Source of the DNA: Pseudotabrizicola sp.
Lineage (GTDB): Bacteria; Pseudomonadota; Alphaproteobacteria; Rhodobacterales; Rhodobacteraceae
Length of the DNA: 64,000 nt
Assembly: GCF_030684215.1 (NCBI RefSeq)
Contig: NZ_JAUXOV010000052.1
Coordinates: 1 to 64,000, forward strand
Direction: 5' to 3'
Part shown: positions 40,870 through 60,316 of the stretch, piece after piece
How positions within the stretch are numbered: position 1 is the first letter of the stretch
How the letters are laid out: the number at the start of each line of letters is the position of its first letter
Notes under the pieces: generated by a model
What the model was told of the DNA's origin: nothing
What the model saw: only the letters and a program-made list of their open reading frames with translations
Databases searched by the model: none
Position numbers and translations under genes: made by a program

Positions 40870-41993
40870 TGACAACCGCATTCACTGGTGCACGGGTCTT
40901 TGATGGTCTGACGCTGCACGACGATGCTGTTCTGCTTGCCGATGGCGCGCGGGTTATCGGCCTTGCGTCATCAGTGCCGGCGGATGCCGATGTGATCGCA
41001 CTGGGGGGCGGTATTCTGTCGCCCGGTCTGATCGACCTTCAGGTGAATGGCGGTGGCGGGCTGATGGTCGATGGCCAGTGCAGCGCCGAGACCCTTCGCG
41101 CGATCTGTGCAACGCATGCGCAAATGGGAACAACGGGGATTTTGCCGACCCTGATCACCGATACCGCCGCCGCCACGGCGCATCTGATCGAGACGGCGAT
41201 CGACTGCATCGGCGCGCCGGGCTTTCTTGGCCTGCATCTGGAAGGGCCGCATCTGGACCCGCGTCGCAAGGGTGCGCATGATCCGCGCCTGATCCGGCCG
41301 ATGGGAGACCAGGATCTTGACGTGCTGATCAGTGCCGCGCGTCGCCTCCCTGCCGTGATGATTACGGTCGCGCCCTCTGCTGTACGTCTTGATCAGATCA
41401 TGGCCCTTACGCAGGCTGGTGCGATCGTCAGCCTTGGCCACACCGAATGCACATTTGCCGAGGCCGAAGCCGCCTTTGCAGCTGGTGCGCGCTGTGCGAC
41501 CCATCTGTTCAACGCGATGAGCCAGCTTGGCAATCGCGAACCCGGCCTTGTAGGGGCCGTGCTGGCCCATGACATTGCCGCCGGGATCATTGCAGACACA
41601 ATTCATGTGGCACCCGCAACTTTGCGTATTGCGTTGGCCGCCCGGCCTGAGGGGCTGTTTCTTGTATCAGATTGCATGGCCGCTGCTGGCACCGATCAAA
41701 CCGAATTCAACCTTGGCGGCCGCAAGATCTTGCGTCGCAACGGGCGTCTAACACTGGAAGATGGCACGCTTGCGGGTGCTGATCTGACTTTGCCACAGGC
41801 CATTGCGATCATGGTACATACCATCGGCCTGCCGCCTGAACGCGCACTTGCCATGGCAACCCGCGCACCTGCGCAAGTGATTGGGCGCGACGATCTGGGC
41901 CATCTGAACGCAGGCTCATGCGCCGATCTGGTGCATCTGAGCGATGAGTTTCAGGTGCAATCCGTCTGGCAGAGTGGTCAAAAACGGCTCTAA
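40869..41993 (+). CDS. nagA: N-acetylglucosamine-6-phosphate deacetylase
   Basis: The 374-residue metal-dependent amidohydrolase removes acetate from GlcNAc-6-phosphate. It shows DLQVNGGGG near 57, the HLEGPHLDPRRKGAH motif (metal Glu) near 120, LGHTECT near 190, ATHLFNAMSQ near 212, and the catalytic Asp in VSDCMAAAGT near 270. Its ATG overlaps the deaminase stop by one base. It converges with hyuB, and the two stop codons overlap (41990-41993). Together with the kinase, MurQ and deaminase it completes breakdown of MurNAc/GlcNAc to fructose-6-phosphate. Confidence 0.9.
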   Translation: MTTAFTGARVFDGLTLHDDAVLLADGARVIGLASSVPADADVIALGGGILSPGLIDLQVNGGGGLMVDGQCSAETLRAICATHAQMGTTGILPTLITDTAAATAHLIETAIDCIGAPGFLGLHLEGPHLDPRRKGAHDPRLIRPMGDQDLDVLISAARRLPAVMITVAPSAVRLDQIMALTQAGAIVSLGHTECTFAEAEAAFAAGARCATHLFNAMSQLGNREPGLVGAVLAHDIAAGIIADTIHVAPATLRIALAARPEGLFLVSDCMAAAGTDQTEFNLGGRKILRRNGRLTLEDGTLAGADLTLPQAIAIMVHTIGLPPERALAMATRAPAQVIGRDDLGHLNAGSCADLVHLSDEFQVQSVWQSGQKRL

Positions 41994-43672
41994 CCTTGCC
42001 AGTTCCACAAAGCGCGCGCTTGGTTGGCGGTATAGCGGCCCAACCGTACATCTTCAGCGACCAAGGCCGGATCGCGCTGTGACGGGTCGCCAAACCCACC
42101 CCCACCAGGCGTGCGCACGCGTACACTGTCGCCGGGCGACAAAACGATATCCTGTGCCTTTGATAAGTGGGGCGGGACAAAAACCGCCCCGTCCCGGATT
42201 ACCTCGACCCGGTTCACCTCTCCGTCTTGTCCTCCTTGTGCCCCCAATGGCCCGGTCAGGCCGTGGTCCATTACGAAACTGGCCCGCGCCTCGCCGCGCA
42301 ACAACTCTATCTCGTAATCAAGGCCAAACCCGCCCCGATGCATGCCCGCCCCGCCGCTGCCTTCGTGCAAAGCATAGCGCCGATACAGCACCGGGAACTT
42401 TTGCTCCATGATTTCAACCGGCGGCGCCTTTGAGATTCCAATCGTGGAACATCCGTTCGACAGACCGTCATGATCGGCGTTTCCACCATAGCCACCACCG
42501 GAAATCTGATACATGACAAAGCTTTGCCCGGTATTTGGGTCGAAACCACCCAAGCCGAAATTGCCACTGGTGCCTGCCGGAGCCGCCGTCACCCGATCAG
42601 GAATGGCCTGCACCAAGGCCGCAAATACCGCCTCGGCAATGCGCTGGCTGACCTCTGCCGCACAGCCTGACACTGGACGCGGATAGTGGGCATCCAGAAA
42701 GGTGCCCTCAATCCCGGTGACGTGCAGCGGTTCAAACGCCCCGGCGCTGATCGGCACATCGGGGAAAATATGGCGCATCGCCAGATAAACCGAAGACAGC
42801 GTTGTGGCCCGAACCGAGTTCATCGGCCCCGTGCAGGGTGGCGAGCTTTGTGCGAAATCAAAGGTCAACTCACCCGCGGCTTTCGACACTGTAACAGCGA
42901 TTTTCAGCGGTTCATTGACCACGCCATCAGAATCGACAACCGCAGTAGCTTGATAGTTGCCGTCTGCGATCAGTCCAATCATCGCGCGCATTTGTTGCGC
43001 TGCGCGGGTTCGCATTTCCGCAATTGCCTGACTTACGGTCGCATCGCCATAGCGGTCAAGCAGGCGCACCAACCGTTCCGCCCCGATCAACAGCGCACTG
43101 GCTTGTGCCTGTACATCCCCGATCCGCTGCTCTGACACGCGAATGTTCGAACAGATAATTTGCCAGATTTCAGGGTCTAACATGCCTTTTTTGAACAGTT
43201 TTACCGGGGGAATCCGCAACCCCTCCTGCTCGGCGCTGATGGCGCTGGCACTGAATCCACCCGGAACTGCACCCCCGGTATCAGGCCAATGCCCTGTGTT
43301 AGACAGCCAGCAGTAAATCACGCCCTCACGCCAGACGGGCATGGCAAAACGCACATCCATAAGGTGTGTGCCGCCCAGATAGGGGTCGTTCACCATATAG
43401 ATGTCACCCGGTTCCGGCGCTGCGGTCAGGCCGTCGCGGATCCGTTCTATGATTGTACGGGTCGAAAACTGCATCACGCCAACAAACACTGGCAGGCCCT
43501 TTGACCCTTGGGCGATAAGGCTGCCGTCTTCGGCGCTGTAAATCCCGTCTGACCTGTCATCCGCCTCGGCGATCACGGGCGAGAAAGCGGCGCGGCTGAA
43601 GGTCAAGTCCATCTCGTCGCAGACCTGCTGCAAGTTGGCCTGAATGACGGCAAGCGTGACAGGATCAAGCAT
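41990..43672 (-). CDS. hyuB: Hydantoinase B/oxoprolinase-type subunit (HyuB)
   Basis: The 560-residue protein is the catalytic B subunit of ATP-dependent hydantoinase/oxoprolinase-type enzymes. Family features include the start DPVTLAVIQANLQQVCDEM, DPYLGGTHLMDV near 105, and GSGGAGMHRGGFGLDYEIELL near 430. With HyuA it uses ATP to open lactam-type rings such as 5-oxoproline or N-methylhydantoin, or in other members to carboxylate ketones. It overlaps hyuA by eight bases and ends the long operon. A lactam product of the upstream ring-reducing enzymes would be a logical substrate; this is inferred. Confidence 0.85.
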   Translation of the reverse strand: MLDPVTLAVIQANLQQVCDEMDLTFSRAAFSPVIAEADDRSDGIYSAEDGSLIAQGSKGLPVFVGVMQFSTRTIIERIRDGLTAAPEPGDIYMVNDPYLGGTHLMDVRFAMPVWREGVIYCWLSNTGHWPDTGGAVPGGFSASAISAEQEGLRIPPVKLFKKGMLDPEIWQIICSNIRVSEQRIGDVQAQASALLIGAERLVRLLDRYGDATVSQAIAEMRTRAAQQMRAMIGLIADGNYQATAVVDSDGVVNEPLKIAVTVSKAAGELTFDFAQSSPPCTGPMNSVRATTLSSVYLAMRHIFPDVPISAGAFEPLHVTGIEGTFLDAHYPRPVSGCAAEVSQRIAEAVFAALVQAIPDRVTAAPAGTSGNFGLGGFDPNTGQSFVMYQISGGGYGGNADHDGLSNGCSTIGISKAPPVEIMEQKFPVLYRRYALHEGSGGAGMHRGGFGLDYEIELLRGEARASFVMDHGLTGPLGAQGGQDGEVNRVEVIRDGAVFVPPHLSKAQDIVLSPGDSVRVRTPGGGGFGDPSQRDPALVAEDVRLGRYTANQARALWNWQG

Positions 43673-45685
43673 GGCTCACCTGCACAATCAGGTTTCCATC
43701 ACTGTCCGAAGTTACCAGACACCCCGGTTCAATCACGATCGTTGTATCCATTTGCTCTATAATTGCAGGGCCTTGAAGTGACAGTTGCAACGGCAGATGG
43801 TCGCGCCAATACACCGGCGCCTCAACCCAGCCGTTGAACCAGACAGCACGAACAGATGCCGGCACTGCCTCGTTTCGCCGCCCAGCCCGGTCAATCAAAG
43901 CCGACAGGTCCATTTCCGGGCGCTCGCCAATGACCGAGACGTTCAGGTTGACCAGATTGGCCTTGATCGTCGGCAGTTCCACCCTGAACCGCAGGTGATA
44001 AGCGGCTTCAAACAAGCGCTGCAATTCAGCGCGAGAAGGCGAGCCGTTTGGCAAGGCCACGCGCAGCAGGTGGGTTTGGCCGACAAACTGCATATCGGCA
44101 GAATACTCGGCGCGCACGTTGGTCAATCGAATGTTTTCAGCCCCGATCAAACGCCGGCCTTCGGCCTCCTGATCAGCCAATACGCCATGCACAGTGTCGA
44201 TTTCAATGTGATCAAGTGGCTGGTTTAAAGTGCGCACAAAATCTTGCCGCAGATCGGCGACCACACAACCCAACGCATTGGTGATACCTGGCCGCGCCGG
44301 GATCAGCACTTTTGGCACTGCCAGTTCGCGCGCCAAAGCGACGGCGTGCAGCGGTCCGGCGCCACCAAAAGCAAACAGCGCGAAATCGCGGGGATCGGCC
44401 CCCATGCTGATGGACACCATGCGGATTGCCCCGGCCATGTGAACATTGGCGATCTGCACAACGGCTTCGGCTGCTTGCTCCACCGAAAGACCCAGCGGCG
44501 CCGCAATCTGGTCTGCCATCGCCTGCCGTGCCGCATCGGCCGCCTGCCCGAACCGACTGGCAGGCAAACGCCCGAGCAGCAGATTGGCGTCAGAGATCGT
44601 CACCTTTGTCCCGCCGCGCCCGTAGCAGACCGGGCCGGGGGTCGATCCCGCACTGTCCGGTCCCACCCGCAGCATTCCGCCCGCATCAATACGTGCGATG
44701 GACCCGCCCCCTGCGCCCACGGTTCGCACATCAACCATCGGCACATGGATCGGCATGGCATATTCCACCTCGATCTCGTTTGACACCGGCGCCCGCCCGT
44801 CGCGGATCATCGCCACATCGGTCGAGGTGCCACCCATGTCATAGGTCAACAGGTTGTTTATCCCCGCCCGCCGCCCCGTCGCCACGGCTGCCATCACGCC
44901 AGAGGCAGGGCCGGACATTACGGTCTTTACAGCCTCTTTCGACACTAATTTTGCCGAAACCATCCCGCCATTGCCATTCATCACCAGTAAATCGTGCCGG
45001 TAACCTTTGGCTGTCAATTGATCCGCAAGGCGCGAGACATAGCGCTCCAGCAAAGGTTGCACGCTGGCATTCACCGCCGCAGTGACTCCACGTTCGTATT
45101 CACGGCTTTCTGACAGCAGGGAATGGCCCATGGTGATATAGCTGTTGGGCCAGACTTCGGCGGCAATCTCTGCTGCACGCCGCTCATGAGCCGGGTTCGC
45201 ATAGGCGTGCAAAAAGTGGATCACAAGACTTTCGCACCCCATTTCCCGCAGTGTCAGAGCCGCTTTGCGCATGGCATCCGCATCAAGCGGAACCAGAACG
45301 GACCCGCGCGCATCCATCCGTTCCGGCACTTCAAGGCGCAGATCGCGCGGGATGATCGGCGTGAAGCGTCCGTGCATGCCATAGGCATTTGGCCGGGTAC
45401 GCCGCCCCAGTTCCAGAATGTCACGAAAGCCCATGGTTGTTATCAGCCCGGTCTTCGCAAGCGTCCGTTCCAGCACTGCATTGGTGGTCGTGGTCGTTCC
45501 GTGAACGATCAGGTCAATCTGCGACAAGTCCGCACCGGCCTCTGCCAGAGCATTCAGCACGCCGGGTGCCTGATTGGGCAGGGTGGTTGATACCTTTGCC
45601 AGCTTTACCGCCCCGGTCGCAGGATCGACGATCACCAGATCGGTGAACGTTCCACCGACATCAACTCCGGCCACAAGTCCCGCCA

Positions 45686-45686
<1 letters not shown>
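43665..45686 (-). CDS. hyuA: Hydantoinase A/oxoprolinase-type ATP-binding subunit (HyuA)
   Basis: The 673-residue subunit has the actin-fold ATP motif GVDVGGTFTDLVI at the start, HGTTTTTNAVLER near 65, LTYDMGGTSTDVAMI near 290 and FGGAGPLHAVALARELAVPKVLIP near 450. It activates the substrate with ATP for HyuB. The ATG at 45686 overlaps the livF stop by one base; a TTG one codon upstream is less likely. Being in the same operon as a branched-chain-type ABC transporter and a molybdenum hydroxylase points to a ring-opening role in catabolism of an imported heterocycle. Confidence 0.87.
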
Positions 45687-46367
<681 letters not shown>

Positions 46368-46381
<14 letters not shown>

Positions 46382-47087
46382 GATCAACCCCCAGGTAGGC
46401 GTCCTGAACGACCCTGTTCATACGGATTTCTTCAGGTGTGCCCACCGCCAGAACCTGCCCGAAGTTCAAAACGGTGATCCGGTCGGCAAGGTCCATCACC
46501 ACATCCATATTGTGCTCGATCAGCAGTATTGTGGTCTGCGGCACAAGGGACCGGATCAACGCCTTGAAGCCCGCGATTTCGCCCGAAGCAAGACCCTGCG
46601 TCGGCTCATCCAGGATCAGAACCGAAGGTTGCAGGGCAAGGCCCATCGCCACCTCAAGCAAGCGCTGATGGCCATAAGACAGCGTGCCTGCCAAGGCCTG
46701 TTCCAGACCAGCCATGCCGACACGGTTCAACGCGTCCGCCACCTCGGCCACAACATCGCCAGCGCCCCGGCTTTGTGCGGCCAGCGCAACATTGTCGAAG
46801 ACGCTTAGCCGTGGATAAACCGAGGTGATCTGGAACGTATAGGCCACGCCCGCCCGCACACGAAGATGGGCAGGCATGTGGGTGATGTCGGTCCCGTTCA
46901 GCATGATGGAGCCCGATTGCACCGGCACCCGGCCAGACAACAGGCTGACAAAAGTAGTTTTGCCCGCGCCATTCGGCCCGATTAAACCATGAATCTCGCC
47001 TTGTTGGAGCCTAAAATCCACACCGTCCACGGCCCGCAACCCACCGAAATACCGGGTCAGCCCGCGCGCTTCGATCACGGCAGCCAT
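46368..47087 (-). CDS. livG: Branched-chain-type ABC transporter ATPase (LivG)
   Basis: The 239-residue ATPase shows GPNGAGKTT (Walker A), AYTFQITSVYPRLSVFDNV (LivG-type Q-loop region), LSYGHQRLLEVAMGLALQPSVLILDEP (signature and Walker B) and LLIEHNMDVV (H-loop). It overlaps livM by 13 bases. It is the second ATPase of the HAAT importer. Confidence 0.87.
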
Positions 47088-48019
47088 GGGGCGATCCTTT
47101 CGCGCAACGTGCCCAGTATGCCCTTGGGCGCGAACAGCACCAAGCCCACAAGGGCCGCACCCACAACGAACAAATAGGCGTCGGTATAGCCGCTGGTGAT
47201 GTCGATCAGATAGAACATCAAAAGCGCCCCAAGAAACGGTCCCAACACCGTGCCCGCCCCGCCAAGCAGCACATAAAGCATTGGCAGGATCGAATATTGG
47301 ATCGTTGCAAAGGTCGCCCCGACATAGCCAAACAGCATCCCATAAGCCGCCCCCGCCGCCCCAGCATATACGCCCGACACAATCAGCGCGATGAGTTTGA
47401 TCCGGAACGGGTCGTATCCCAGCATCCGACTGCGTTCCTCATTCTCGCGCATTGCTACCATCACCCGGCCAAGCGGCGACCGGACCAGCCACAAACACAC
47501 CAGCATAGCGCAGGCAAACAGCGCAAACGCGGCCATAAAGCGCGGCGTGTCGGTGGCCAGATCCAGTCCGCCCAGAACACGCGCTGTGCGCGCAACGACA
47601 AAGCCTTCGTCGCCGCCGGTCCATGTGTTTAGATACAAAAGCGTCAGATAACCCGCTTGGGCAAACATCAGCGTGACAATCATAAAACTGACCCCCGCCG
47701 TGCGCAGCGCCAAAAGCCCGACCGCGCCGGCAAGCAAGCCCCCAACCATCAGTCCCGCAATCAGCGCGGGCAGGGGCAGCCAGCCCAGATGCCAGATCGG
47801 CAGGCCCATTGCATAGAACCCCGCCGCAAAGAACAGCGCATGCCCCAGCGACAAAAGGCCGGTGTAGCCAAAGGCAATGTTATAGCCCATCGCGAACACT
47901 GCCAGCACCATGATCCGCGCCAGATTGGTCATGTGATAGGACGGCAGCACGAATTGCGCCGCAAACACCACCACCAGGATCAGGAGGTGCAGGCCCCAGA
48001 TCTTCGCCCCCTGGGTCAT
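47075..48019 (-). CDS. livM: Branched-chain-type ABC transporter permease (LivM)
   Basis: The 314-residue permease has about eight to nine helices and family segments YNIAFGYTGLLSLGHALFF near 45-65 and GGAGTVLGPFLGALLMF near 253. It overlaps livH by four bases (ATGA). It forms the transport channel together with LivH. Confidence 0.86.
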   Translation of the reverse strand: MTQGAKIWGLHLLILVVVFAAQFVLPSYHMTNLARIMVLAVFAMGYNIAFGYTGLLSLGHALFFAAGFYAMGLPIWHLGWLPLPALIAGLMVGGLLAGAVGLLALRTAGVSFMIVTLMFAQAGYLTLLYLNTWTGGDEGFVVARTARVLGGLDLATDTPRFMAAFALFACAMLVCLWLVRSPLGRVMVAMRENEERSRMLGYDPFRIKLIALIVSGVYAGAAGAAYGMLFGYVGATFATIQYSILPMLYVLLGGAGTVLGPFLGALLMFYLIDITSGYTDAYLFVVGAALVGLVLFAPKGILGTLRERIAPWLP

Positions 48020-48894
48020 GCGCGGGCTCCGAACAGGCCCTGCGGGCGGAACACAAGCACCATTGCAACCAGCAGCGTTGCGATGATTTTTGCCAGCGTG
48101 GGGGAAAAGAACATGCTGATCACCCCATCTGAAAGCCCGATCACCAGCGCCGCTACCAGTGTGCCCCGGATCGACCCAAGTCCTCCGATAATGACCACGA
48201 TAAAGGACAGCAAAAGCGGGTCATGCCCCATCAGGTAATGCGCCTGCTGTATCGGCACGATCAGCACCGCCGCTGCTGCCGCAAGCGCCCCACCAAGGGC
48301 GAAAGTGCCCGCATAGACCCGATCTACGTTGATACCAAAGGCCTGCGCCGTTTCACGGTCCACCTGCGTTGCCCGCATCACAAGGCCCGCCTTGGTGCGC
48401 GTCATGAACACCCAGACCGCCACCAGAATGATCGCCGCCGCCAGCACGACAAACAGCTTGTACCCTGAATACCCGAACCATGGCAGTTGGATACGCCACT
48501 GAAACGGGGCGACAACCGGGCGCGCGTCTGATCCGTAAAACGTCAGCGCTGCCTGTTGCAGCATGTAAAGCAGACCGATGGTGGCCACGATCGTGGCTTC
48601 GGGGTCATAGTTCAGGCGCTTCAGAACCAGCGTATCGGCAAGCGCTGCAATCAGCGCAACGGCCAAAGGCGCAATGATCAGTGCTGCCAGCCAGGCAAGC
48701 GCAGGCGGAAACGGCAGATAATAGGTCACAAACCATGCGACCACCGCGCCGATCATGTAAAACTCGCCATGCGCCACGTTCACCACGCGCATCACGCCGA
48801 ACACCAGCGACAGCCCTACGGCTGTCAGTGCCAGCACCGCAGCCATGACAGTGCCTTCCAGTAGCGCAAGAAGAAGAAAAGGTCCGAAGGCCAC
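48016..48894 (-). CDS. livH: Branched-chain-type ABC transporter permease (LivH)
   Basis: This 292-residue permease has about eight helices and typical family segments GLSLVFGVMRVVNVAHGEFYMIGA near 27-50 and IVVIIGGLGSIRGTLVAALVIG near 232. It lies 43 bases after the binding-protein gene. It is one of the two channel subunits of the importer. Confidence 0.86.
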   Translation of the reverse strand: MAFGPFLLLALLEGTVMAAVLALTAVGLSLVFGVMRVVNVAHGEFYMIGAVVAWFVTYYLPFPPALAWLAALIIAPLAVALIAALADTLVLKRLNYDPEATIVATIGLLYMLQQAALTFYGSDARPVVAPFQWRIQLPWFGYSGYKLFVVLAAAIILVAVWVFMTRTKAGLVMRATQVDRETAQAFGINVDRVYAGTFALGGALAAAAAVLIVPIQQAHYLMGHDPLLLSFIVVIIGGLGSIRGTLVAALVIGLSDGVISMFFSPTLAKIIATLLVAMVLVFRPQGLFGARA

Positions 48895-48912
48895 AGCGCC
48901 CGCCTGTTATTT

Positions 48913-50218: not shown

Positions 50219-50305
50219 TTCCAAAATCTCCACTGTTGCGGCACACCTCTGATGGGGCCTCTAGTTTAACACTTTGCTGGAACGATTGGTTTGTCCATGG
50301 TTTTT

Positions 50306-52230: not shown

Positions 52231-53059
52231 AGGTAAGTTCCTTTAGGGCAAGCGGGCCAAGTGTCCGCACCTCAGGGTGCAGGAAAAGAGCTGCGGCTTC
52301 AATAAGTCCCTGCGACCGGAACGCCTCCGCTGCTGCTTCACCCGCGTTCAAGGCGCGGAAGCGGTCGGCTTCGGTTAGGCCCGACACCGCCACGGTGACC
52401 AAGCGCGCGCCAAGGTCGCTGTCAGTCTGCATCTGGTGCGCCGGGCGCCGGGTGATGCCGGGGTGGTCGGGCAGGTTGACCGCGTTGGCGATCATCGTTG
52501 CTGCCGCATCGGCCATTGCGGACGTTTTCGCCAGCACAGAGACGGAATCGGCAATACCACACGACCAGCTGCGCCCGCGCCAGCCGCTTGTAGCAATGCC
52601 GCGCACGGTGTCTTCGGCGCGAAGCGTTACCCGGTCGGGCATGCCGGGTCGCGCGGCGATGGCGCAGCTCAGGCTCTCGCCGGGGTCCAGGTGCAGCGCT
52701 ATGTCGCCACCGTTGTTCACGTAGGCACGCCGCACGCCGGGCACGGCGAGTTCGGCCAGAAGCACATCTGCCACGGCCCCGGCCACCGCGGCCATCGGTG
52801 TGATGAAGGCGGGGGTAAAGACGGTCGTTGCGCGCACCATCAGCTGCGCAATCGGGCCGGTGGGTTGCCCGCTCTCGCGCCGAAGTTCGGGCAGTTCAGA
52901 GGCTAATTCCGCCAACACAGAGCCGAATCGTGCCACCATCCGCGCCTCGCCGGAAGCGACGGAGGCGGGGCTGCCCCATGCTTGTGCGATGATGTCGATG
53001 GGGCCGTGGTGCAGGTGCAACCGCCCATCTGGCAGACGCGCACAGGTGGCACTGGTCAC
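52223..53059 (-). CDS. UPF0280 family protein (ApbE-like fold)
   Basis: The 278-residue protein belongs to the UPF0280 family, related in fold to ApbE flavin transferases. The segment TPMAAVAGAVADVLL near 85 and AYVNNGGDIALHL near 113 resemble the ApbE nucleotide-binding region. The start is GTG at 53059, overlapping the reductase stop (GTGA). A speculative role is maturation of, or flavin transfer to, a neighbouring oxidoreductase. Nothing in the sequence proves activity. Confidence 0.72.
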   Translation of the reverse strand: MTSATCARLPDGRLHLHHGPIDIIAQAWGSPASVASGEARMVARFGSVLAELASELPELRRESGQPTGPIAQLMVRATTVFTPAFITPMAAVAGAVADVLLAELAVPGVRRAYVNNGGDIALHLDPGESLSCAIAARPGMPDRVTLRAEDTVRGIATSGWRGRSWSCGIADSVSVLAKTSAMADAAATMIANAVNLPDHPGITRRPAHQMQTDSDLGARLVTVAVSGLTEADRFRALNAGEAAAEAFRSQGLIEAAALFLHPEVRTLGPLALKELTCV

Positions 53060-54510
53060 GATGGCACCTCTGGCGGTGCGGTCAGGTGGGCGTGGGTCTG
53101 ATACTCGCCACCCTCTGCGCGTACCTCACCCAGCGTGCGGATGGCCGTGTCGTGCCCGCCCATGGCCAGATAATCGGCGCGCGGCAGGGTGAATTCCAGC
53201 GGTGCCACAAGGGCCGGGGTCGGCACATAGCCGAACGCGCCTTCGGGCAGGCGGGTAACATCGACCATAAAGGTGATCCCACCGCCCGGCCAGATATAGC
53301 AGGGCGCGCCGCCGCTGGTCAGCCGGGTTTGCCCCGCCTGCACCGACCGGGTCAGCCGCACCGGGTTTTGCGTGACGCCCGCGCGCAATGACCCGCCCGC
53401 GCCGCCCATGAACAGCACCGTGCACAGAGACGGCTCGCAGTTTTCGTCTATCATCCCGACGGTGGCGCGCAAAGCTGGCGGAAGATCCTTTTTTTGCGGT
53501 GTCAGAGACTCATCCAGCTCATAATAGCCGAACTCCTCGCCCGTGGTGGAAACCATCAAAAGCCGTAATCCCGCCCGCGCACCGCGCCGCGCTTCCCACG
53601 GGCCAAGAATTTCCAGCGGGTCGGTCAGACGTGTGCCGCCCCAGCCAAGCCCCGGCTCTGACACCCGGAAATAGCGTCCGGGGGTGGAGCGGTGGCCTTT
53701 TACCCGGATGCCGGTGGGTTGCCAGCCCAGCACTTTGCCGGCCTGATGTTCGCTGACAACGCCGGTGATGTGGTCGTCAACCACCACCACCTCATCCACC
53801 AGCCCGACCCATTGGCTGGCGAACATGCCGATGGTGGCTGAGCCGCAGCCGACCCGCATCCGGCGCTCCGGAGTGCCGTCCACAATGGGGGGGTGACCTG
53901 CCTGCACGGTGACGCTGGACCCGCCGTCGATACTCAGGGTGACAGCCGCGCCATTACAAAGAGCCAGAAGCGTGGCGCAGGTGATACGCCCCTCGGGTTT
54001 GCTGCCGCCGGTCAGGTGATGCACGCCGCCCAAGGACAGCATCTGGCTGCCGTATTCGGCGGTTGTGACATGGCCCACAGGCTCACCCTCCGCCCGGATG
54101 ATCGCGCCTTCGGCTCCCAGATGACGGTCGGTGTCGATCTTCACCTTGACGCCGCAATAGGAAAAGATCGCCTCTGTAACAACCGTGACCATATCGGCCC
54201 CATCAACATCGGAAGCGACGATGAAAGGAGCGGGCTTGTAATCGGGATAGGTGGTGCCAGAGCCGATTCCGGTCACGACCGTATCTGCGGGGAAGGCGTC
54301 ACCATCCCAGTCGCGGGTGGCAAAGGGCACAATGCGGCCACCGGTATCAAGGCTGCGTGTCAGCATCACCACCGGATCGGTGCGCAGGATGCGCCCATCT
54401 TGATTGGCATAGCGGTCGCAGGCCCCGGTCTGGCCGGGGGCGATGTAGCACATCACCGGACAAGCGTCGCAGCGGATTTTTTCCGTGCTGCTGGTGGGCT
54501 GCCCGGTCAT
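53056..54510 (-). CDS. 6-hydroxynicotinate reductase-like Fe-S protein
   Basis: The 484-residue protein resembles 6-hydroxynicotinate reductase, the enzyme that reduces the pyridine ring of 6-hydroxynicotinate to a tetrahydro-oxo product in clostridial nicotinate fermentation. An N-terminal cysteine cluster (CDACPVMC, then a further Cys after nine residues, at about residues 14-30) could bind a 4Fe-4S centre. Further cysteines occur near 130, 180 and 360. It overlaps the small ORF upstream and the UPF0280 gene downstream. Together with the molybdenum hydroxylase genes upstream it suggests hydroxylation and then reduction of a heteroaromatic ring. The family name is recognised with moderate confidence; the substrate is unknown. 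Confidence 0.7.
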   Translation of the reverse strand: MTGQPTSSTEKIRCDACPVMCYIAPGQTGACDRYANQDGRILRTDPVVMLTRSLDTGGRIVPFATRDWDGDAFPADTVVTGIGSGTTYPDYKPAPFIVASDVDGADMVTVVTEAIFSYCGVKVKIDTDRHLGAEGAIIRAEGEPVGHVTTAEYGSQMLSLGGVHHLTGGSKPEGRITCATLLALCNGAAVTLSIDGGSSVTVQAGHPPIVDGTPERRMRVGCGSATIGMFASQWVGLVDEVVVVDDHITGVVSEHQAGKVLGWQPTGIRVKGHRSTPGRYFRVSEPGLGWGGTRLTDPLEILGPWEARRGARAGLRLLMVSTTGEEFGYYELDESLTPQKKDLPPALRATVGMIDENCEPSLCTVLFMGGAGGSLRAGVTQNPVRLTRSVQAGQTRLTSGGAPCYIWPGGGITFMVDVTRLPEGAFGYVPTPALVAPLEFTLPRADYLAMGGHDTAIRTLGEVRAEGGEYQTHAHLTAPPEVPS

Positions 54511-54644
54511 TGCTGGCCTGCGAGGGGCTTGGTGGCCAGTGGAGCACCAAAGGTTTTACCCCGCCCAGCCAGTGGTTTCTCGGACCAATGGCTGCCCGCG
54601 GAGTATTTCGGGCCAAGATGAAACGCATGGGCGGGAAAGGTCAT
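54507..54644 (-). CDS. 45-residue ORF coupled between the hydroxylase and reductase genes
   Basis: An ATG at 54644 overlaps the stop of the molybdenum hydroxylase gene by four bases (ATGA). The frame runs 45 codons to a TGA at 54507-54509, which overlaps the ATG of the reductase-like gene by four bases. It starts MTFPAHAFHLGPKYSAGSHW and ends LATKPLAGQQ. The predicted peptide is basic and rich in Gly, Ala and Pro, with several His and aromatic residues and no cysteine or membrane segment. I do not recognise a family. The double overlap strongly suggests that it is translated. A role as a small subunit or assembly factor of the reductase or hydroxylase is possible. Confidence 0.6.
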   Translation of the reverse strand: MTFPAHAFHLGPKYSAGSHWSEKPLAGRGKTFGAPLATKPLAGQQ

Positions 54645-57304
54645 CGATTGGCCTCAAGTGCGGCAAGAATGCGGTGGGGAAGGGCGGGTACGCACGTAAG
54701 GGTTGCGCCTGTGGCATGGCGGATTGCGTTCAGGATCGCGGGTGCGGTGGGGATCAGCACATGTTCTCCCAGACCTTTGGCGCCGAAGGGGCCCTCGGGA
54801 TCTGGCACCTCGATCAAAAGGCTGTCGATTCTGGGCACATCGCCGATGGTGGGGATCAGATAGTCGTGCAGGTTTTCGGTTCGGCCGGGCAGGTACTCCT
54901 CCATCAGCGCAAGACCAATGCCTTGTGCGATGCCACCCTCGATCTGGCCGGTGGCAAGCTGAGGATTGATGGCGCAACCCACATCATGCGCGGCGGTGAT
55001 TTTCAGCAAGCGCACGGTGCCAAGCGCCCGGTCCACCTCTAGTTCCACCATTTGCGCCCCGTAGCCATACAGCGCATAGGGCGTGCCCTGCCCGTTCGCA
55101 TCGAGTGCCGAGGTGGGCGGGTCGTAGGTTGCGTCTGCACTAAGCGCATATCCGTGGGTGTCCGGGGGCAGGCTGGCCAATGGGATCTGGCGGCGTGCGC
55201 CGGCTTCAGTGATCGTCAGAACCGCGCCTTCAAGCGATAGGGATGCGCTGGTGCCAGCATTCGTCAGGCGCAAGATTTGACTGCGCAGCGCCTCTGCCGC
55301 CGCTTTGGCTGCGCGCCCTGATACGAAGGTCTGTCGGCTGGCCGATGTTTTGCCCGCATCAGGCGTCAGCATGGTGTCAGGGCCGATCAGGGTTATCTGG
55401 TCAAGCGGAAGGCCAAGGGCCTGTGCTGCGATTTGGGCGATGACGGTATTCGACCCTTGGCCGATATCCGTCGCGCCTTGATGCAGCACCACGCGACCCT
55501 TCTGCGACAGGCCGATACGGATGGTGGACGGGTTAGGCAAGGACGTGTTGCCACAGCCATACCAACAAGACGCAATGCCGACACCACGGCCCGGAACCTT
55601 CTCTGACAAGGCCCTTTTCCAATGAGGGCGCAGGGCGGTGAGGCATGGTTTTATACCCGTCGCCTGCAACACCTGCCCGGTGGCCGTTGCATCGCCATCG
55701 CAAATTGCGTTCAGAATGCGGAACTCCAGCCGGTCCAGTCCGGCTTTGTCTGCCAACTGATCAAACAGTGTTTCCTGCCATAGCGCCGCTTGTGGCACGC
55801 CAAAGCCGCGAAACGCGCCCGAAACCGGGCCGTGGGTGTGAATGGCACGGGCGCGGGCGGTGACATTCGGGGTCAGGTAGGGACCGGTCACGTGCACCGG
55901 CACCCGATTTGCGACCGTTGGACCCCAACTGGCATAGGCGCCGGTGTTGAACCGCCCTTCAAATGCAAGGGCCGTGATCCGACCGTCTGCATCGCAGCCG
56001 ATCTGGCCCTGCATTTCGGCTGGATGACGTTTCGTGGTCGATGTCATGCTCTCGGTGCGGGAATAGACCATCCGGCAGGGGAGGCCAGTTTTCAGCGCAA
56101 CAAGACCAATCAGCGGTTGCAGACTGACATCGAGTTTTGACCCGAACCCACCCCCCACAGCCGACGGAATGATCCTGACCCGTTCCGGCGGCAAGCCAAG
56201 GATCAGGGCGGTGTCGTCGCGGTCCATGACCGGGGCTTGGGTGCAGGCGCGGATGGTCAGCGTATCCGCGTCCATCCAAGCGGTGCCTGCCTCGGGTTCG
56301 ATATAGGCGTGTTCGACATAGCCGGTCTGAATCGCACCGCTGACAACATGGGCCGAGTTTGCAAGCGCCTGCGCGGCATCGCCCTTGACGACACGGCCCT
56401 CGATCAGGCGGTTGTCGGGCCGGTCAGGATGAATTTGCGCAGCCCCGAGTGACTCGGCCTCGGCCGGGGTGGAAAGGGCCGCCAAGGGTTGCCAGTCAAT
56501 TGGGAAATCGGTCAGATCAGGCTCTGTTCCGGCCTTAAACGCCACCAATGCCACACATTCGCCGCGAAACCGGGCTGGGGTTTCGGCAATTGCGGGCTGG
56601 TCGGCAAAGGCGGGAATGACACCAAAGGCGTTTCGGCCCGGAATGTCGGCAGCGGTGAACACGCCTGCCACGCCGGGGCGCTGGGCATAGTCTGCCAGAT
56701 CGCCAAACCGAAACGATGCATGGGCGTGCGGAGAGCGGACCGCCACCACCGTCAGCGCACCATCCGGTATATGGTCAGCGCCGAAATTGTCGCCGCGCAC
56801 CTTGGCCTCACCGTCCAGTCGTTGCACAGGGGTGCCAATACCCCCCGTAAAGATCGGTTCAGGCAGCCCCGTGTCGCAGATCGCCGCGATGATCTTGCGA
56901 TATCCAGTGCAGCGGCACAGCACACCGCCTAGCGCATCCTGCACCTGACTTTCTGATGGTGCCGGCACGCGACGCAAAAGATCCATCCCGGCCATCAGCA
57001 TGCCGGGGGTGCAGATGCCGCATTGCGCCGCACCGTGGCGCAAAAAGGCCTGCCGCAGCCGGTCCAGATCCAGGGCTTGCGATTCTATGGTTTCAACCTC
57101 TCCACCCGCCGTCCGCGCGGCAGGCACCATGCAGGCGCAGACCTGTGCGCCGTTCAAAAGCACCGTGCAGGCCCCGCAATCGCCCGCGTCGCAGCCAACC
57201 TTTGTGCCCATCAGCCCAAGGTGATCGCGCAAAACGGTGGTCAGGCGCGCGGTCGGGTCGGCGTCGCAGGTGACGGGCTGGCCATTCAGCGTAAAGCGGA
57301 TCAT
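54641..57304 (-). CDS. Molybdenum hydroxylase with fused 2Fe-2S and molybdopterin subunits (xanthine dehydrogenase family)
   Basis: The 887-residue protein joins an N-terminal Fe-S subunit (about residues 1-155) to a molybdopterin-binding subunit (about 165-887). Fe-S cysteines appear in CDAGDCGACTVLLNG and in CGICTPGM followed by CRCTGYRK. Molybdopterin motifs include GGGFGSKLDVS near 383, GAFRGFGVPQAALWQE near 487, GKTSASRQTFVSGRA near 645 and GGIAQGIGLALMEE near 800 with the likely catalytic Glu. Such enzymes hydroxylate carbon atoms of N-heterocycles. It overlaps the FAD subunit gene by four bases and the small ORF at its other end. The fused layout is less usual than three separate genes. 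Confidence 0.85.
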   Translation of the reverse strand: MIRFTLNGQPVTCDADPTARLTTVLRDHLGLMGTKVGCDAGDCGACTVLLNGAQVCACMVPAARTAGGEVETIESQALDLDRLRQAFLRHGAAQCGICTPGMLMAGMDLLRRVPAPSESQVQDALGGVLCRCTGYRKIIAAICDTGLPEPIFTGGIGTPVQRLDGEAKVRGDNFGADHIPDGALTVVAVRSPHAHASFRFGDLADYAQRPGVAGVFTAADIPGRNAFGVIPAFADQPAIAETPARFRGECVALVAFKAGTEPDLTDFPIDWQPLAALSTPAEAESLGAAQIHPDRPDNRLIEGRVVKGDAAQALANSAHVVSGAIQTGYVEHAYIEPEAGTAWMDADTLTIRACTQAPVMDRDDTALILGLPPERVRIIPSAVGGGFGSKLDVSLQPLIGLVALKTGLPCRMVYSRTESMTSTTKRHPAEMQGQIGCDADGRITALAFEGRFNTGAYASWGPTVANRVPVHVTGPYLTPNVTARARAIHTHGPVSGAFRGFGVPQAALWQETLFDQLADKAGLDRLEFRILNAICDGDATATGQVLQATGIKPCLTALRPHWKRALSEKVPGRGVGIASCWYGCGNTSLPNPSTIRIGLSQKGRVVLHQGATDIGQGSNTVIAQIAAQALGLPLDQITLIGPDTMLTPDAGKTSASRQTFVSGRAAKAAAEALRSQILRLTNAGTSASLSLEGAVLTITEAGARRQIPLASLPPDTHGYALSADATYDPPTSALDANGQGTPYALYGYGAQMVELEVDRALGTVRLLKITAAHDVGCAINPQLATGQIEGGIAQGIGLALMEEYLPGRTENLHDYLIPTIGDVPRIDSLLIEVPDPEGPFGAKGLGEHVLIPTAPAILNAIRHATGATLTCVPALPHRILAALEANR

Positions 57305-58128
57305 GCCACAGCCTCAGCAATGGCGCGGCGCAGCAACTCTGCGGCGGCTGTCCGGCGATAGAGTGCTGTGGCCCGGATATCGTCGATAGGCGACAAGGCC
57401 CCGGCAAGATCATGTGGTGTCACAAGCTGCGGCGCATCAACCGGTTTGGCCCCGATCAGCGCGGCCTCTGCGACGGGCAGACGTTGCGCCACGCCAGAGC
57501 ACGCCCCTACAGCAAGTGCAGCGCCGGTGATCCGGCCATTTTCAACCTGAATCCGCGCTGCTGCCATCGCAATCGAGATCACCAGATAGGCCCGTGCGCC
57601 CAGTTTGACGAAAGCTGATCGCCCGGTCAGTGCTGATGCGGGCAGGATCACGGCGGTCAGGATTTCATCTGACGCGCGCAAGGTTTGGCGCGGCCCGATC
57701 AACAATTGTGTAAGCGGCACCCGGCGCAGACCCAACGGCCCGGCCAGTTCGACCACCGCATCCAACGCCAAGAGCGGCGGCACACCATCGGCAGCGGGCG
57801 AGGCGTTGCACAGGTTTCCCCCAATTGTACCCATATTCTGCACCTGCCGTCCGCCCACCTGTCGTGCGGCCTGTTGCAAGGCGCAAAGAGCGGGCGGAAG
57901 CGCCGCTTCGGCAATCATCGTCCATGTGGTGCAGGCCCCGATGCGCAGGCCATCGCCTTGGGTAATGCCACACAGCGCGGGAATGGCTGTCAGATCAAGA
58001 ATGTCGCCATCAATCCGGCGGCCAACGGTCGGATAAAGATCTGTCCCGCCTGCAAGAATCCGGCGCGGCGTCTGCGCCATCAGTCCGACTGCCTCATCCA
58101 GAGTTTGTGGTCGCGCATAGTCGCGCAT
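57301..58128 (-). CDS. FAD-binding subunit of the molybdenum hydroxylase (CoxM/CutM type)
   Basis: The 275-residue protein has the FAD-binding segments RRILAGGTDLYPTV near residue 23 and MGTIGGNLCNASPAADG near 102, then a C-terminal CO_deh_flav_C-like domain. It passes electrons from the Fe-S clusters of the neighbouring hydroxylase to an acceptor. The ATG at 58128 follows GGGGGAA and gives the normal N-terminus MRDYARPQTLDEAV; the longer frame extends into the divergent promoter. It is the first gene of the long minus-strand operon. Confidence 0.86.
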   Translation of the reverse strand: MRDYARPQTLDEAVGLMAQTPRRILAGGTDLYPTVGRRIDGDILDLTAIPALCGITQGDGLRIGACTTWTMIAEAALPPALCALQQAARQVGGRQVQNMGTIGGNLCNASPAADGVPPLLALDAVVELAGPLGLRRVPLTQLLIGPRQTLRASDEILTAVILPASALTGRSAFVKLGARAYLVISIAMAAARIQVENGRITGAALAVGACSGVAQRLPVAEAALIGAKPVDAPQLVTPHDLAGALSPIDDIRATALYRRTAAAELLRRAIAEAVA

Positions 58129-58282
58129 GAATTCCCCCGCGTCATTTACTGGCGAGAGTGGGGCCGCAAGCCCCGCCCTGTCAACGGCACTTGGGCGGCA
58201 GGAACAGACATCCAGCAGTCGTTTTCTTCTCAGCACGCCGCGTGATGCAAACCTAGGCTGTCAGAAAACAGGAAGGTGCCAG

Positions 58283-60316
58283 ATGTCCAGCGACCCGTTG
58301 TTGCAGCCGTATCAGCTAAAACACCTGACCCTTCGCAACCGGATCATGACCACAAGTCACGAACCGGCCTATCCCGAAGACGGGATGCCAAAAGATCGCT
58401 ACCGCCTGTATCATCTGGAACGGGCAAAAGCGGGTGTAGCCCTGACCATGACTGCGGGATCGGCTGCGGTGTCAAAGGACAGCCCACCGGTGTTCAATAA
58501 CATCCTCGCCTACAAGGACGAGGTGGTGCCATGGATGAAACGCCTGACTGACGATTGCCACGAAGCCGGGGCGGCGGTGATGATCCAGCTGACCCACCTT
58601 GGCCGCCGCACCCGTTGGGACAAGGGCGACTGGCTGCCGGTGGTCGGCGCTGGCCCCTCGCGCGAACCGGCGCACCGGGCCTTTCCCAAGGTTGCAGAAG
58701 ATTGGGACATCGCCCGCATCATCACCGATTACGCTGATGCCGCCGAACGGATGCAGGCGGCGGGTCTCGATGGGGTGGAATTCGAGTGCTATGGCCATCT
58801 GATGGATCAGTTCATGTCGCCCTTTACCAACGCTTTGGCCGCGCCTTATGGCGGCAGTCTGGAAAACCGGGCGCGCTTTGCGATGGATGTGCTGGCCGCC
58901 TGTCGCAAGCGGGTGGGAAACGGCTTTCTGCTGGGCGTGCGCTATACTGCTGACGAGGCAGAGCCGGGCGGGATTGATGCCGATGAAGGCATCGCGATTG
59001 GCAAGATGTTCCGCGACTCTGGCTTGGTTGATTTTCTGAACATCATCAAAGGGCGCATCCACACCGATCCGGCGATGACCGATGTTATCCCGATTCAGGG
59101 CATGAAATCCGCGCCTCACCTTGATTTTGCCGGGCGTGTGCGGGCCGAGGTCGGGTTGCCGACCTTTCACGCCGCGCGCATCCCCGATGTGGCCACCGCG
59201 CGCTATGCGGTGCAGTCGGGGCAGTTGGATATGGTGGGCATGACGCGGGCGCACATGGCCGACCCGCATATCGTGCGTAAGATCATCGAGGGCCGCGAGG
59301 AAGATATCCGTCCTTGCGTCGGCGCGACCTATTGCCTTGACCGGATCTATCAGGGCGGCATGGCGCTGTGCATCCACAACCCGGCGACGGGGCGCGAAGA
59401 AACCATGCCGCATACCATCCTGCCCGCCCCGGTGGCAAAGCATGTGGTGATCGTCGGCGCGGGGCCTGCCGGGCTGGAAGCCGCGCGCGTCGCCGCCGAG
59501 CGGGGCCACCGGGTGACAGTGCTGGAGGCCGCAGACCAACCCGGTGGTCAGGTGCGGCTGACCGCACAGACCAAGCGCCGGGCCGAGATGATCGGCATCA
59601 TCGATTGGCGCATGGCGCAATGTGCGGCGCGCGGGGTGGCGTTTAATTTCAACACCTGGGCCGAAGCCGATGATGTGCTGGCCCTGTCGCCCGATGTGGT
59701 GATCATCGCCACGGGCGGTCTGCCCGACATGGCGGTGCTTGAGGCTGGCAACGATTTGACGGTCAGTGCGTGGGATATCTTGTCTGGTGATGTCAAGCCC
59801 GGCACGAATGTGCTGCTTTATGATGACGCGGGTGACCACACCGCCCTGCAAGCCGCGCAACTGCTGGCCGAATCTGGTGCCACGGTCGAGGTGATGACCC
59901 CGGACCGCAGCTTTGCACCCGAGGTTATGGGGATGAACCTTGTGCCCTATATGCGGGCTTTGCAGGATAAACCTGTTACCTTTACAGTAACTTACCGTTT
60001 GCGCAGTGTCGCGCGAGACGGAAACCAACTGCGCGCCACCATCGGGTCTGACTATATGGATGTCTCCAAGCAGCGCAGCTTTGATCAGATCGTGGTCAAC
60101 CACTCGACCCAACCGCTCGCCGATGTTTACTTCGATCTGAAGCCTCGGTCGCACAATCTTGGCGGTGTTGAGTATGACGCCCTTATCGCGGGCATGCCGC
60201 AGCCTGCGGGGCAGGGGCCAGAGGGCTTTGCGCTGTATCGAATCGGGGATGCAGTCGCGTCGCGCAACACGCATGCGGCGATCTATGATGCATTGCGATT
60301 GGTCAAAGACATATAG
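58283..60316 (+). CDS. Fe-S flavoprotein of the Old Yellow Enzyme/trimethylamine dehydrogenase family
   Basis: The 677-residue protein has an FMN barrel domain (about residues 5-350), an Fe-S region and a C-terminal FAD/NAD-binding domain (GAGPAGLEAARVAAERGH near 395). This layout is shared by 2,4-dienoyl-CoA reductase, trimethylamine dehydrogenase and N-methylproline demethylase. The Fe-S motif reads CVGATYC, then Cys after 11 residues. Compared with CIGCNVC the second cysteine is alanine, leaving three of the four ligands. The ATG at 58283 follows AGGAAG. It is divergent from the hydroxylase operon across 154 bases, suggesting shared regulation. It may reduce a ring double bond or remove an N-methyl group. 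Confidence 0.82.
   Translation: MSSDPLLQPYQLKHLTLRNRIMTTSHEPAYPEDGMPKDRYRLYHLERAKAGVALTMTAGSAAVSKDSPPVFNNILAYKDEVVPWMKRLTDDCHEAGAAVMIQLTHLGRRTRWDKGDWLPVVGAGPSREPAHRAFPKVAEDWDIARIITDYADAAERMQAAGLDGVEFECYGHLMDQFMSPFTNALAAPYGGSLENRARFAMDVLAACRKRVGNGFLLGVRYTADEAEPGGIDADEGIAIGKMFRDSGLVDFLNIIKGRIHTDPAMTDVIPIQGMKSAPHLDFAGRVRAEVGLPTFHAARIPDVATARYAVQSGQLDMVGMTRAHMADPHIVRKIIEGREEDIRPCVGATYCLDRIYQGGMALCIHNPATGREETMPHTILPAPVAKHVVIVGAGPAGLEAARVAAERGHRVTVLEAADQPGGQVRLTAQTKRRAEMIGIIDWRMAQCAARGVAFNFNTWAEADDVLALSPDVVIIATGGLPDMAVLEAGNDLTVSAWDILSGDVKPGTNVLLYDDAGDHTALQAAQLLAESGATVEVMTPDRSFAPEVMGMNLVPYMRALQDKPVTFTVTYRLRSVARDGNQLRATIGSDYMDVSKQRSFDQIVVNHSTQPLADVYFDLKPRSHNLGGVEYDALIAGMPQPAGQGPEGFALYRIGDAVASRNTHAAIYDALRLVKDI

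What the first reader, a model, noticed from the sequence alone, without database searches (positions are those of the whole stretch)
41990..60316. Long overlapping operon likely for nitrogen-heterocycle breakdown
From 58128 down to 41990, fourteen minus-strand genes follow one another, mostly with overlaps of 1-14 bases and two gaps under 90 bases. They encode a molybdenum hydroxylase (FAD subunit plus fused Fe-S/Mo subunit), a 45-residue ORF, a 6-hydroxynicotinate reductase-like protein, UPF0280, DUF1185, a membrane protein, a branched-chain-type importer and HyuA/HyuB. An Fe-S flavoprotein is divergent. From known family chemistry this is import, ring hydroxylation, ring reduction and ATP-driven ring opening. 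Molybdenum hydroxylase plus Hnr is known for nicotinate; using HyuAB in place of a simple amidohydrolase and the added conserved unknown families would make a distinct route. The substrate is inferred only as an N-heterocycle.
Basis: partly seen in the sequence, partly recalled or inferred. Interest (0 to 1): 0.75.

Follow-up and report, generated by a model that had tools for sequence, protein, structure and literature searches.

The report
Nicotinate operon with ATP-driven ring opening
This bacterial operon very probably imports and breaks down nicotinate (vitamin B3), using an ATP-consuming enzyme pair to open the ring where the known form of the pathway uses a simple hydrolase; related bacteria carry almost always one enzyme or the other.

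Summary
The operon is real, except the 45-residue ORF. Its Hnr-like gene marks a widespread alphaproteobacterial cluster: 77 of 292 sampled genomes of the order hold it full-length, and the same 77 hold UPF0280. Its make-up fits the nicotinate cluster described for Azorhizobium and Bradyrhizobiaceae (PMC3511419, passages), so nicotinate via tetrahydro-6-oxonicotinate (THON) is the likeliest route.

New here: ring opening has two exchangeable forms. Of the 77 genomes, 39 have only an enamidase (a representative matches E. barkeri enamidase 2vun at E 7.6e-106), 37 only the HyuAB type seen here, one both, none neither. In 51 further alphaproteobacterial genomes it is 21 against 30, none with both. 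The Hnr tree needs 5-6 switches. HyuB keeps caprolactamase's four metal ligands. I infer an ATP-dependent THON lactamase; the paper listings seen do not report one. UPF0280 always accompanies Hnr in that order, but tests for a canonical ApbE-type flavin transferase failed. No activity was tested. Verdict: new variant of a known pathway.

The parts
57301..58128 (-). FAD subunit of the molybdenum hydroxylase (xdhB type); likely start at the internal ATG 58128 (ORF from 58236)
   Evidence: FAD_binding_5 E 4.8e-40, CO_deh_flav_C; ORF
54641..57304 (-). fused Fe-S/molybdopterin subunit (887 aa), inferred nicotinate hydroxylase
   Evidence: MoCoBD_1/2, Fer2, Fer2_2; PDB relatives include E. barkeri nicotinate dehydrogenase 3hrd (E 2e-68) but aldehyde oxidoreductases score higher; beside hnr in 72 of 76 order loci
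54507..54644 (-). 45-residue ORF, judged not a gene; part of an insert with a palindromic repeat
   Evidence: no matching ORF at the junction of 10 relatives
53056..54510 (-). Hnr-like protein (484 aa), inferred 6-hydroxynicotinate reductase; N-terminal C-x2-C-x3-C-x9-C motif and further conserved cysteines
   Evidence: public annotation of relatives; conserved Cys 14, 17, 21, 31, 119, 222, 358 in all rows of A1 and A3; no Pfam/NCBIfam/PDB relative
52223..53059 (-). UPF0280 (COG2122), inferred maturation or accessory factor of Hnr
   Evidence: NF003322; PDB 2o34; same 77 of 292 genomes as Hnr
51649..52230 (-). DUF1185 / AA_synth protein, role unknown
   Evidence: Pfam E 1.7e-64; PDB 3byq, 2qtp
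50306..51652 (-). membrane protein of a family without a Pfam or NCBIfam model; goes with the type-1 importer
   Evidence: no family; with type-1 liv genes in 27 of the 29 order loci that hold it; AF2 mean pLDDT 76.3, no PDB fold match
48938..50233 (-). livK, substrate-binding protein of the importer
   Evidence: Peripla_BP_6 E 1.6e-51
48016..48894 (-). livH permease
   Evidence: BPD_transp_2
47075..48019 (-). livM permease
   Evidence: BPD_transp_2
46368..47087 (-). livG ATPase
   Evidence: ABC_tran, BCA_ABC_TP_C
45686..46387 (-). livF ATPase
   Evidence: ABC_tran
43665..45689 (-). hyuA, ATP-binding subunit of the inferred THON lactamase
   Evidence: Hydant_A_N, Hydantoinase_A; DxGGTxTD motifs, Asp10 46/46 and Asp291 48/48 in relatives of at least 60% identity
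41990..43672 (-). hyuB, metal-site subunit of the inferred THON lactamase
   Evidence: Hydantoinase_B; Asp39, His103, Asp106, His128 align with the metal ligands of PDB 6yra_B, 33/33 in relatives
58127..60316 (+). divergent Fe-S/FMN flavoprotein of the OYE family; weakly linked, probably not part of the core
   Evidence: Oxidored_FMN E 2e-47; a relative of at least 70% identity in 3 of 76, 0 of 7 and 8 of 80 loci

Best explanation
A catabolic operon for nicotinate by the reductive (THON) route. A Liv-type importer, with the membrane protein as its partner, takes nicotinate up; the Mo hydroxylase makes 6-hydroxynicotinate; Hnr, matured or assisted by UPF0280, reduces it to 1,4,5,6-tetrahydro-6-oxonicotinate (THON); HyuAB then opens this six-membered lactam at the cost of ATP (activation of the lactam in HyuA, metal-assisted hydrolysis in HyuB, as proposed for caprolactamase), giving the open-chain aminomethylene acid, which would lose ammonia to 2-formylglutarate and go on to glutarate. 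HyuAB thereby replaces the enamidase of the described pathway. Shown here: the genes, their recurrent company, and the near-perfect exchange of HyuAB and enamidase. Inferred: every substrate, the direction of transport, the ATP use, the order of steps and the maturation role of UPF0280.
For: Hnr full-length in 77 of 292 genomes of the order. Enamidase relatives in 40 of the 77 (37 at 77-92% identity, 3 at 49-51%), HyuB relatives of 74-100% in 38 of the 77 with the next class at 44% or less; one genome has both, none neither. Among the 215 other genomes of the sample none shows HyuB at that level and one shows an enamidase-like protein of 42%. In 51 further alphaproteobacterial genomes: 30 HyuB (64-75%), 21 enamidase (66-78%), none both, none neither (counted). 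The Hnr tree needs 6 changes for HyuAB and 5 for enamidase (shuffled mean 28; supported branches force 5 and 4), including three HyuAB genomes inside the enamidase part of the tree. Two of those three have HyuAB beside the membrane protein and type-1 importer. The enamidase is identified by PDB 2vun, E 7.6e-106 over the full length. Metal and ATP motifs of HyuAB are intact (PMC8453981, passages). ATP-dependent OplAB opens six-membered valerolactams (PMC11033972, passages). The hydroxylase is itself exchanged for NicAB-type genes in 2 of 76 order loci and 3 of 7 plasmid loci (names nicA/nicB). PMC3511419 (passages) describes Hnr, hydroxylase, ABC transporter and two unknown proteins in nicotinate clusters.
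Against: No biochemistry, expression or growth data. Enamidase works without ATP (recalled), so why a cell should spend ATP on THON is unexplained. HyuAB lies within 10 kb of hnr in only 18 of the 76 order loci and enamidase in 29; the partition is at genome level. HyuB relatives of 55-60% occur in genomes that appear to lack Hnr, and one genome has enamidase without Hnr (G372). Three enamidase calls rest on 49-51% identity; without them three genomes would have neither. Only 4 independent pairs exist on supported branches, all in the expected direction but p = 0.125; Fisher p 2.9e-21 ignores kinship. I did not compare the window's Hnr with the E. barkeri or Azorhizobium sequence. The NCBIfam cut-offs for caprolactamase are not reached.
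Confidence: 0.72

Rival explanations
1. HyuAB does not act on THON but on a further reduced, saturated lactam (6-oxopiperidine-3-carboxylate), so that the HyuAB lineages run a longer reductive route; ATP is then needed because saturated lactams are hard to hydrolyse.
For: ATP-dependent enzymes of this family act on saturated lactams (PMC8453981, PMC11033972, passages); an OYE-type reductase is divergent from the operon in the window and some relatives.
Against: No second reductase is constant: the OYE is near hnr in 3 of 76 order loci and also in a locus of the enamidase type (L091). Switches between the two enzymes within one Hnr tree are simplest if both take the same substrate.
Confidence: 0.1
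2. The operon degrades another pyridine or N-heterocycle, and the family name 6-hydroxynicotinate reductase is over-annotation.
For: The Mo subunit is no closer to nicotinate dehydrogenase than to other hydroxylases; no substrate was tested; the Hnr family has no curated model here.
Against: Relatives share the cluster with enamidase, an enzyme of the nicotinate route, and with genes annotated as nicotinate dehydrogenase; SG-6C Hnr is 42% identical to the E. barkeri enzyme in a strain that degrades nicotinate (PMC3511419, passages).
Confidence: 0.13
3. An ordinary known nicotinate cluster; HyuAB is a passenger (hydantoin or oxoproline use) and an unrecognised hydrolase opens THON.
For: The window genome has five further HyuB-like genes, so the family is common; an amidohydrolase lies convergent at 40869-41993.
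Against: The convergent amidohydrolase is not an enamidase relative: no match to enamidase at E 0.001 in the window genome. The HyuB class of 74% or more is confined to Hnr genomes in the order sample and complements enamidase there and in the class sample.
Confidence: 0.05

Closest known systems
Nicotinate fermentation cluster of Eubacterium barkeri (Alhapel 2006, PMC1562527: not held, recalled; mentioned in PMC3511419 and PMC9304392, passages)
   Same: Mo hydroxylase, Hnr and ring opening of THON as successive steps
   Different: E. barkeri uses enamidase; here no enamidase is found in the genome and HyuAB is present. Hydroxylase subunits are arranged differently (fused Fe-S/Mo here).
Nicotinate cluster of Azorhizobium caulinodans ORS571 and Bradyrhizobiaceae SG-6C (PMC3511419, passages; Kitts 1992, PMC207495: not held)
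   Same: Aerobic alphaproteobacteria; Hnr, hydroxylase, putative nicotinate ABC transporter, two conserved unknown proteins; route via THON and glutarate
   Different: The paper says the cluster holds the genes of the first three steps, found by BLAST with the E. barkeri cluster; I did not fetch those loci, so whether they use enamidase or HyuAB, and whether the two unknowns are UPF0280 and DUF1185, was not checked.
Caprolactamase CapAB / 5-oxoprolinase OplAB / hydantoinase HyuAB (PMC8453981, PMC11033972, passages)
   Same: Two-subunit architecture, ATP motifs, four metal ligands; six-membered lactams are substrates of OplAB
   Different: Separate sequence class (NCBIfam caprolactamase cut-offs not reached); company of Hnr, inferred substrate THON
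COG2122/UPF0280 of the DUF39 homocysteine pathway (PMC5764234, passages)
   Same: Same protein family, obligate partner of another enzyme
   Different: Partner here is Hnr, not DUF39; I did not search these genomes for DUF39
ApbE flavin transferase (PMC12052999, passages)
   Same: Distant likeness; Ser and Asp of the catalytic triad align
   Different: Catalytic His missing, Pfam cut-off not reached, no ApbE target motif in Hnr

Membership tests
THON-type nicotinate cluster | Mo hydroxylase beside Hnr | tested here: met
   xdhAC of at least 50% identity in 72 of 76 order loci, nicB in 2, neither in 2
THON-type nicotinate cluster | 6-hydroxynicotinate reductase homologous to E. barkeri Hnr | tested here: inconclusive
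   annotated so in relatives; direct comparison with E. barkeri Hnr not made; 42% for the SG-6C homologue is from PMC3511419
THON-type nicotinate cluster | enamidase | tested here: not met
   no match at E 0.001 in the window genome; relatives with enamidase identified through PDB 2vun. Hence filed as a variant, not as a plain member
THON-type nicotinate cluster | growth on nicotinate with THON as intermediate | not testable with these tools
   no experiment
ATP-dependent lactamase (CapAB/OplAB/HyuAB) | Hydantoinase_A and Hydantoinase_B domains over the full length | tested here: met
ATP-dependent lactamase (CapAB/OplAB/HyuAB) | Asp-His-Asp-His metal ligands of the B subunit | tested here: met
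   Asp39, His103, Asp106, His128 against 6yra_B Asp41, His99, Asp102, His124; 33 of 33 relatives
ATP-dependent lactamase (CapAB/OplAB/HyuAB) | DxGGTxTD ATP motifs of the A subunit | tested here: met
   46 of 46 (Asp10) and 48 of 48 (Asp284, Asp291) relatives; which of the latter equals CapA Asp295 was not settled
ATP-dependent lactamase (CapAB/OplAB/HyuAB) | ATP-dependent lactam hydrolysis | not testable with these tools
   no experiment
Caprolactamase proper (NF050156/NF050157) | curated score cut-off | tested here: not met
   501.7 and 305.8 bits against 1000
ApbE flavin transferase (for UPF0280) | Pfam gathering score | tested here: not met
   19.4 against 25.6 bits
ApbE flavin transferase (for UPF0280) | Ser-His-Asp triad | tested here: not met
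   Ser158 and Asp184 in 21 of 21 rows; no conserved His between them; the HxxDP loop of the window genome's own ApbE has no counterpart in a weak alignment (hhalign probability 7.7)
ApbE flavin transferase (for UPF0280) | target motif D-x-x-[ST]-G-A-[ST] in the partner Hnr | tested here: not met
   0 of 130 Hnr rows

The most novel reading that the evidence does not exclude
UPF0280 is a dedicated maturase of Hnr that works by a chemistry other than ApbE's (for instance attaching the covalent flavin reported for E. barkeri Hnr, recalled, at a new kind of site, or building one of its clusters), Hnr itself is an unseen fold, and HyuAB is a new ATP-dependent THON lactamase; together this would be a separately evolved reductive nicotinate module and would give COG2122 a general role as maturase of oxygen-sensitive enzymes, the homocysteine pathway included.
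Probability: 0.2. Interest if true: 0.8.

Novelty: new variant of a known kind. Interest (0 to 1): 0.55.

Why it matters
Two unrelated enzymes (a metal hydrolase and an ATP-dependent lactamase) appear to be freely exchanged at one step of a vitamin B3 catabolic pathway that is common in soil and marine alphaproteobacteria. That gives a defined substrate prediction for a large class of genes now called only hydantoinase/oxoprolinase, and a clear puzzle: why spend ATP on a step another enzyme does without. The one-to-one company of UPF0280 with Hnr gives a second, simpler setting than homocysteine synthesis in which to find out what COG2122 does.

Tried and rejected
UPF0280 as a canonical ApbE flavin transferase of Hnr: the idea came from the covalent flavin of E. 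barkeri Hnr (recalled; paper not held) and the weak ApbE hit. Rejected in its canonical form: catalytic His absent, target motif absent in 130 rows; PMC5764234 (passages) also says the likeness does not reach the flavin-binding region.

Fold of Hnr and of the membrane protein: AF2 models (mean pLDDT 77.5 and 76.3; alignments of close relatives only) gave no Foldseek match at E 0.001 (best E 0.14 and 0.18). This does not prove a new fold. Sequence search of the PDB with the Hnr profile gave nothing credible.

45-residue ORF: rejected. Search for further genes conserved near hnr: the clusters were mostly antisense ORFs of this G+C-rich DNA; only a CaiB-type CoA-transferase in 8 of the 77 regions was usable. 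Three of the eight were scanned: best NCBIfam succinate-glutarate CoA-transferase, 531-551 bits, under its cut-off of 750; the window genome's best is on another contig, 601 bits, also under it, and 5 of 14 control genomes ring too. Weak support for a glutarate route.

Hnr in viral contigs: none. Class-wide count in one joined search scored only two candidates per genome, so absence there means little; 51 genomes were searched again with up to 11 scored. Those 51 are the 46 genomes, apart from G000, in which one search showed Hnr plus five with a strong HyuB or enamidase only; genomes with HyuB of 55-60% were not searched again. One search had some Hnr rows in the wrong strand; replaced and not used. 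The 80 contig loci are the best 80 of a capped list, lean towards the window's kin and overlap in part with the order sample, so their counts are not independent. Absences hold for the candidates scored (up to 8, 6 and 4 per genome).
Full report
Observation. The operon stands as described except for the 45-residue ORF. The window is contig C41 of a 4.44-Mb genome in 81 contigs; the best named relatives of its Hnr are a Pseudotabrizicola MAG (88%), a Paracoccaceae MAG and a Cypionkella MAG.

Company of Hnr. In 292 sampled genomes of the order, Hnr was matched in 78, one of them a 76-residue fragment with stops (G150), so 77 full-length. UPF0280 was matched in 77, the same handles, with none of the other 215. 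In the 76 fetched order loci (20 kb; 19.9 and 17.9 kb in two) UPF0280 is present in 76 and directly downstream in 74; a DUF1185 gene in 74; two DUF1185 genes in 45; the fused hydroxylase in 72 and a NicB-type one in 2; a MarR-type regulator in 66; type-1 importer genes in 33 and type-2 in 22 (thresholds in the script). The 7 plasmid loci agree: UPF0280 in 7 of 7, DUF1185 in 7 of 7, fused hydroxylase 3, NicB 3, neither 1. Of the 80 contig loci, many of them short, 76 hold UPF0280 and 68 a DUF1185 gene.

Which pathway. Loci with Hnr contain, in place of HyuAB, an amidohydrolase that matches the solved E. barkeri enamidase over its full length. PMC3511419 (passages seen) reports a nicotinate cluster in Azorhizobium, Bradyrhizobium, Rhodopseudomonas and strain SG-6C with hydroxylase, Hnr (42% to E. 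[quoted passage not shown] PMC9304392 (passages) states the THON route and the bifunctional enamidase of E. barkeri. This makes nicotinate the likeliest substrate. Against certainty: the Mo subunit scores higher with aldehyde oxidoreductases than with nicotinate dehydrogenase, and no substrate was tested.

The exchange. I searched the 77 Hnr genomes for enamidase and for HyuB. Enamidase relatives: 40 (37 at 77-92% identity, 3 at 49-51%; two of these three, G121 and G129, lie about 18 kb from hnr and the third, G176, about 5 kb, by the coordinates). HyuB relatives at 74-100%: 38; the next class is at 44% or less. The two sets cover all 77 and share one genome, G206. Among all 292 genomes, HyuB at that level is found in those 38 only, enamidase at E 1e-60 in the 40 plus one 42% protein in an Hnr-less genome (G013). 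Fisher's test gives 2.9e-21 but ignores kinship. On the Hnr tree of 84 rows (76 order loci, the window, 7 plasmid loci labelled by locus only) HyuAB needs 6 changes and enamidase 5, against 28 when shuffled; supported branches force 5 and 4. Three genomes inside the enamidase part (G078, G141, G178) have lost it and have HyuB of 75-76%. Four independent pairs can be drawn on supported branches; all four go the opposite way, p = 0.125, the least four pairs can give.

A second sample. A joined query against 318 genomes of the class showed Hnr in 47, the window's included (two candidates scored per genome). The 46 others plus five with HyuB or enamidase only were searched again: 30 have HyuB (64-75%), 21 enamidase (66-78%), none both, none neither (count checked). 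Hnr is seen in 50 of the 51: in two pieces in G318, in part in G520, not in G372, which has enamidase. HyuB of 55-60% identity occurs in genomes that appear to lack Hnr (for example G404, G506, G595, G302, G385, G471, G410, G513), so the wider class of HyuB has other uses.

Where HyuAB lies apart from hnr. Of nine such HyuAB loci fetched (L200-L202, L204-L209), four (L201, L202, L205, L206) lie beside the membrane protein and importer genes of type 1. In the order loci, the membrane protein occurs in 29 and in 27 of them with type-1 importer genes, never with type-2 alone. So it is a partner of the importer rather than of the enzymes.

Mechanism of ring opening (inferred). HyuA and HyuB are full-length members of the ATP-dependent lactamase superfamily; best named families are the caprolactamase subunits, under their cut-offs. 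HyuB Asp39, His103, Asp106 and His128 align with Asp41, His99, Asp102 and His124 of 6yra_B, the numbering given for the metal ligands of caprolactamase CapB, whose mutants are inactive (PMC8453981, passages); they are kept in 33 of 33 relatives. HyuA keeps its DxGGTxTD aspartates (46/46, 48/48). ATP-dependent OplAB hydrolyses six-membered valerolactams (PMC11033972, passages). THON is a six-membered lactam (chemical knowledge), so ATP-driven opening of THON is chemically plausible. Why ATP is spent remains open.

UPF0280 and Hnr. Strict company argues for a maturation or accessory role. PMC5764234 (passages) shows COG2122 to be needed with DUF39 for homocysteine synthesis and mentions both the distant likeness to ApbE and a suggested role in persulfide modification. 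I tested the ApbE idea: Ser and Asp of the triad named in PMC12052999 (passages) are kept in 21 of 21 rows, the His is not, and the D-x-x-[ST]-G-A-[ST] target motif is in 0 of 130 Hnr rows (rows of two sets, the window counted twice). So a canonical flavin transferase is unlikely; the mechanism stays open. Hnr keeps seven cysteines in all rows of both alignments (14, 17, 21, 31, 119, 222, 358) and two more (178, 185) in over 90%, enough for Fe-S clusters.

Literature. The listings I saw do not link HyuAB with nicotinate: 2 papers; 20 listed; 6, none with hydantoinase beside a nicotinate term; 15 of 100 listed; 12 of 15 listed. The library is open-access only, and key older papers are not held, so prior mention elsewhere is possible.

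Verdict. The operon is a HyuAB-bearing variant of the known reductive nicotinate pathway. The finding of interest is the repeated exchange of enamidase and an ATP-dependent lactamase, and the one-to-one company of UPF0280 with Hnr.

Noticed in passing
window 40869-41993 (+) and 37179-40869: Amidohydrolase convergent with hyuB, next to SIS-domain and solute-binding genes; looks like amino-sugar use (inference), not an enamidase (no match).
   Followed up: partly
window 58128-58280: The window and its nearest kin (L044, L120, L122) lack the MarR-type regulator found beside most clusters and have the OYE gene directly divergent; best own-genome match to the regulator is 29% identical.
   Followed up: partly
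window 54510-54641 and junctions in L044, L048, L120, L121, L045, L124: Short G+C-rich palindromic repeat inserted between xdhAC and hnr, seen in several relatives and not in others; it may act as an attenuator or be a mobile repeat.
   Followed up: no
L203 (G206:C33): The one genome with both enzymes has its enamidase beside two further DUF1185 genes and a different importer, away from hnr.
   Followed up: no
L210 (G013:C15): An Hnr-less genome with an enamidase-like protein of 42% beside a DUF1185 gene: perhaps a related pathway without Hnr.
   Followed up: no
genomes G404, G506, G595, G302, G385, G471, G410, G513: A HyuB class of 55-60% identity in genomes that appear to lack Hnr; substrate unknown.
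   Followed up: no
window 24583-31834: Ig-repeat protein of 1220 aa with a BapA-type start, an ABC exporter and an outer-membrane efflux protein: looks like a type I secretion unit for an adhesin.
   Followed up: no
L076, L077: UPF0280 and a DUF1185 gene lie upstream of the hydroxylase instead of downstream of hnr, the only two of 76 order loci so arranged.
   Followed up: no
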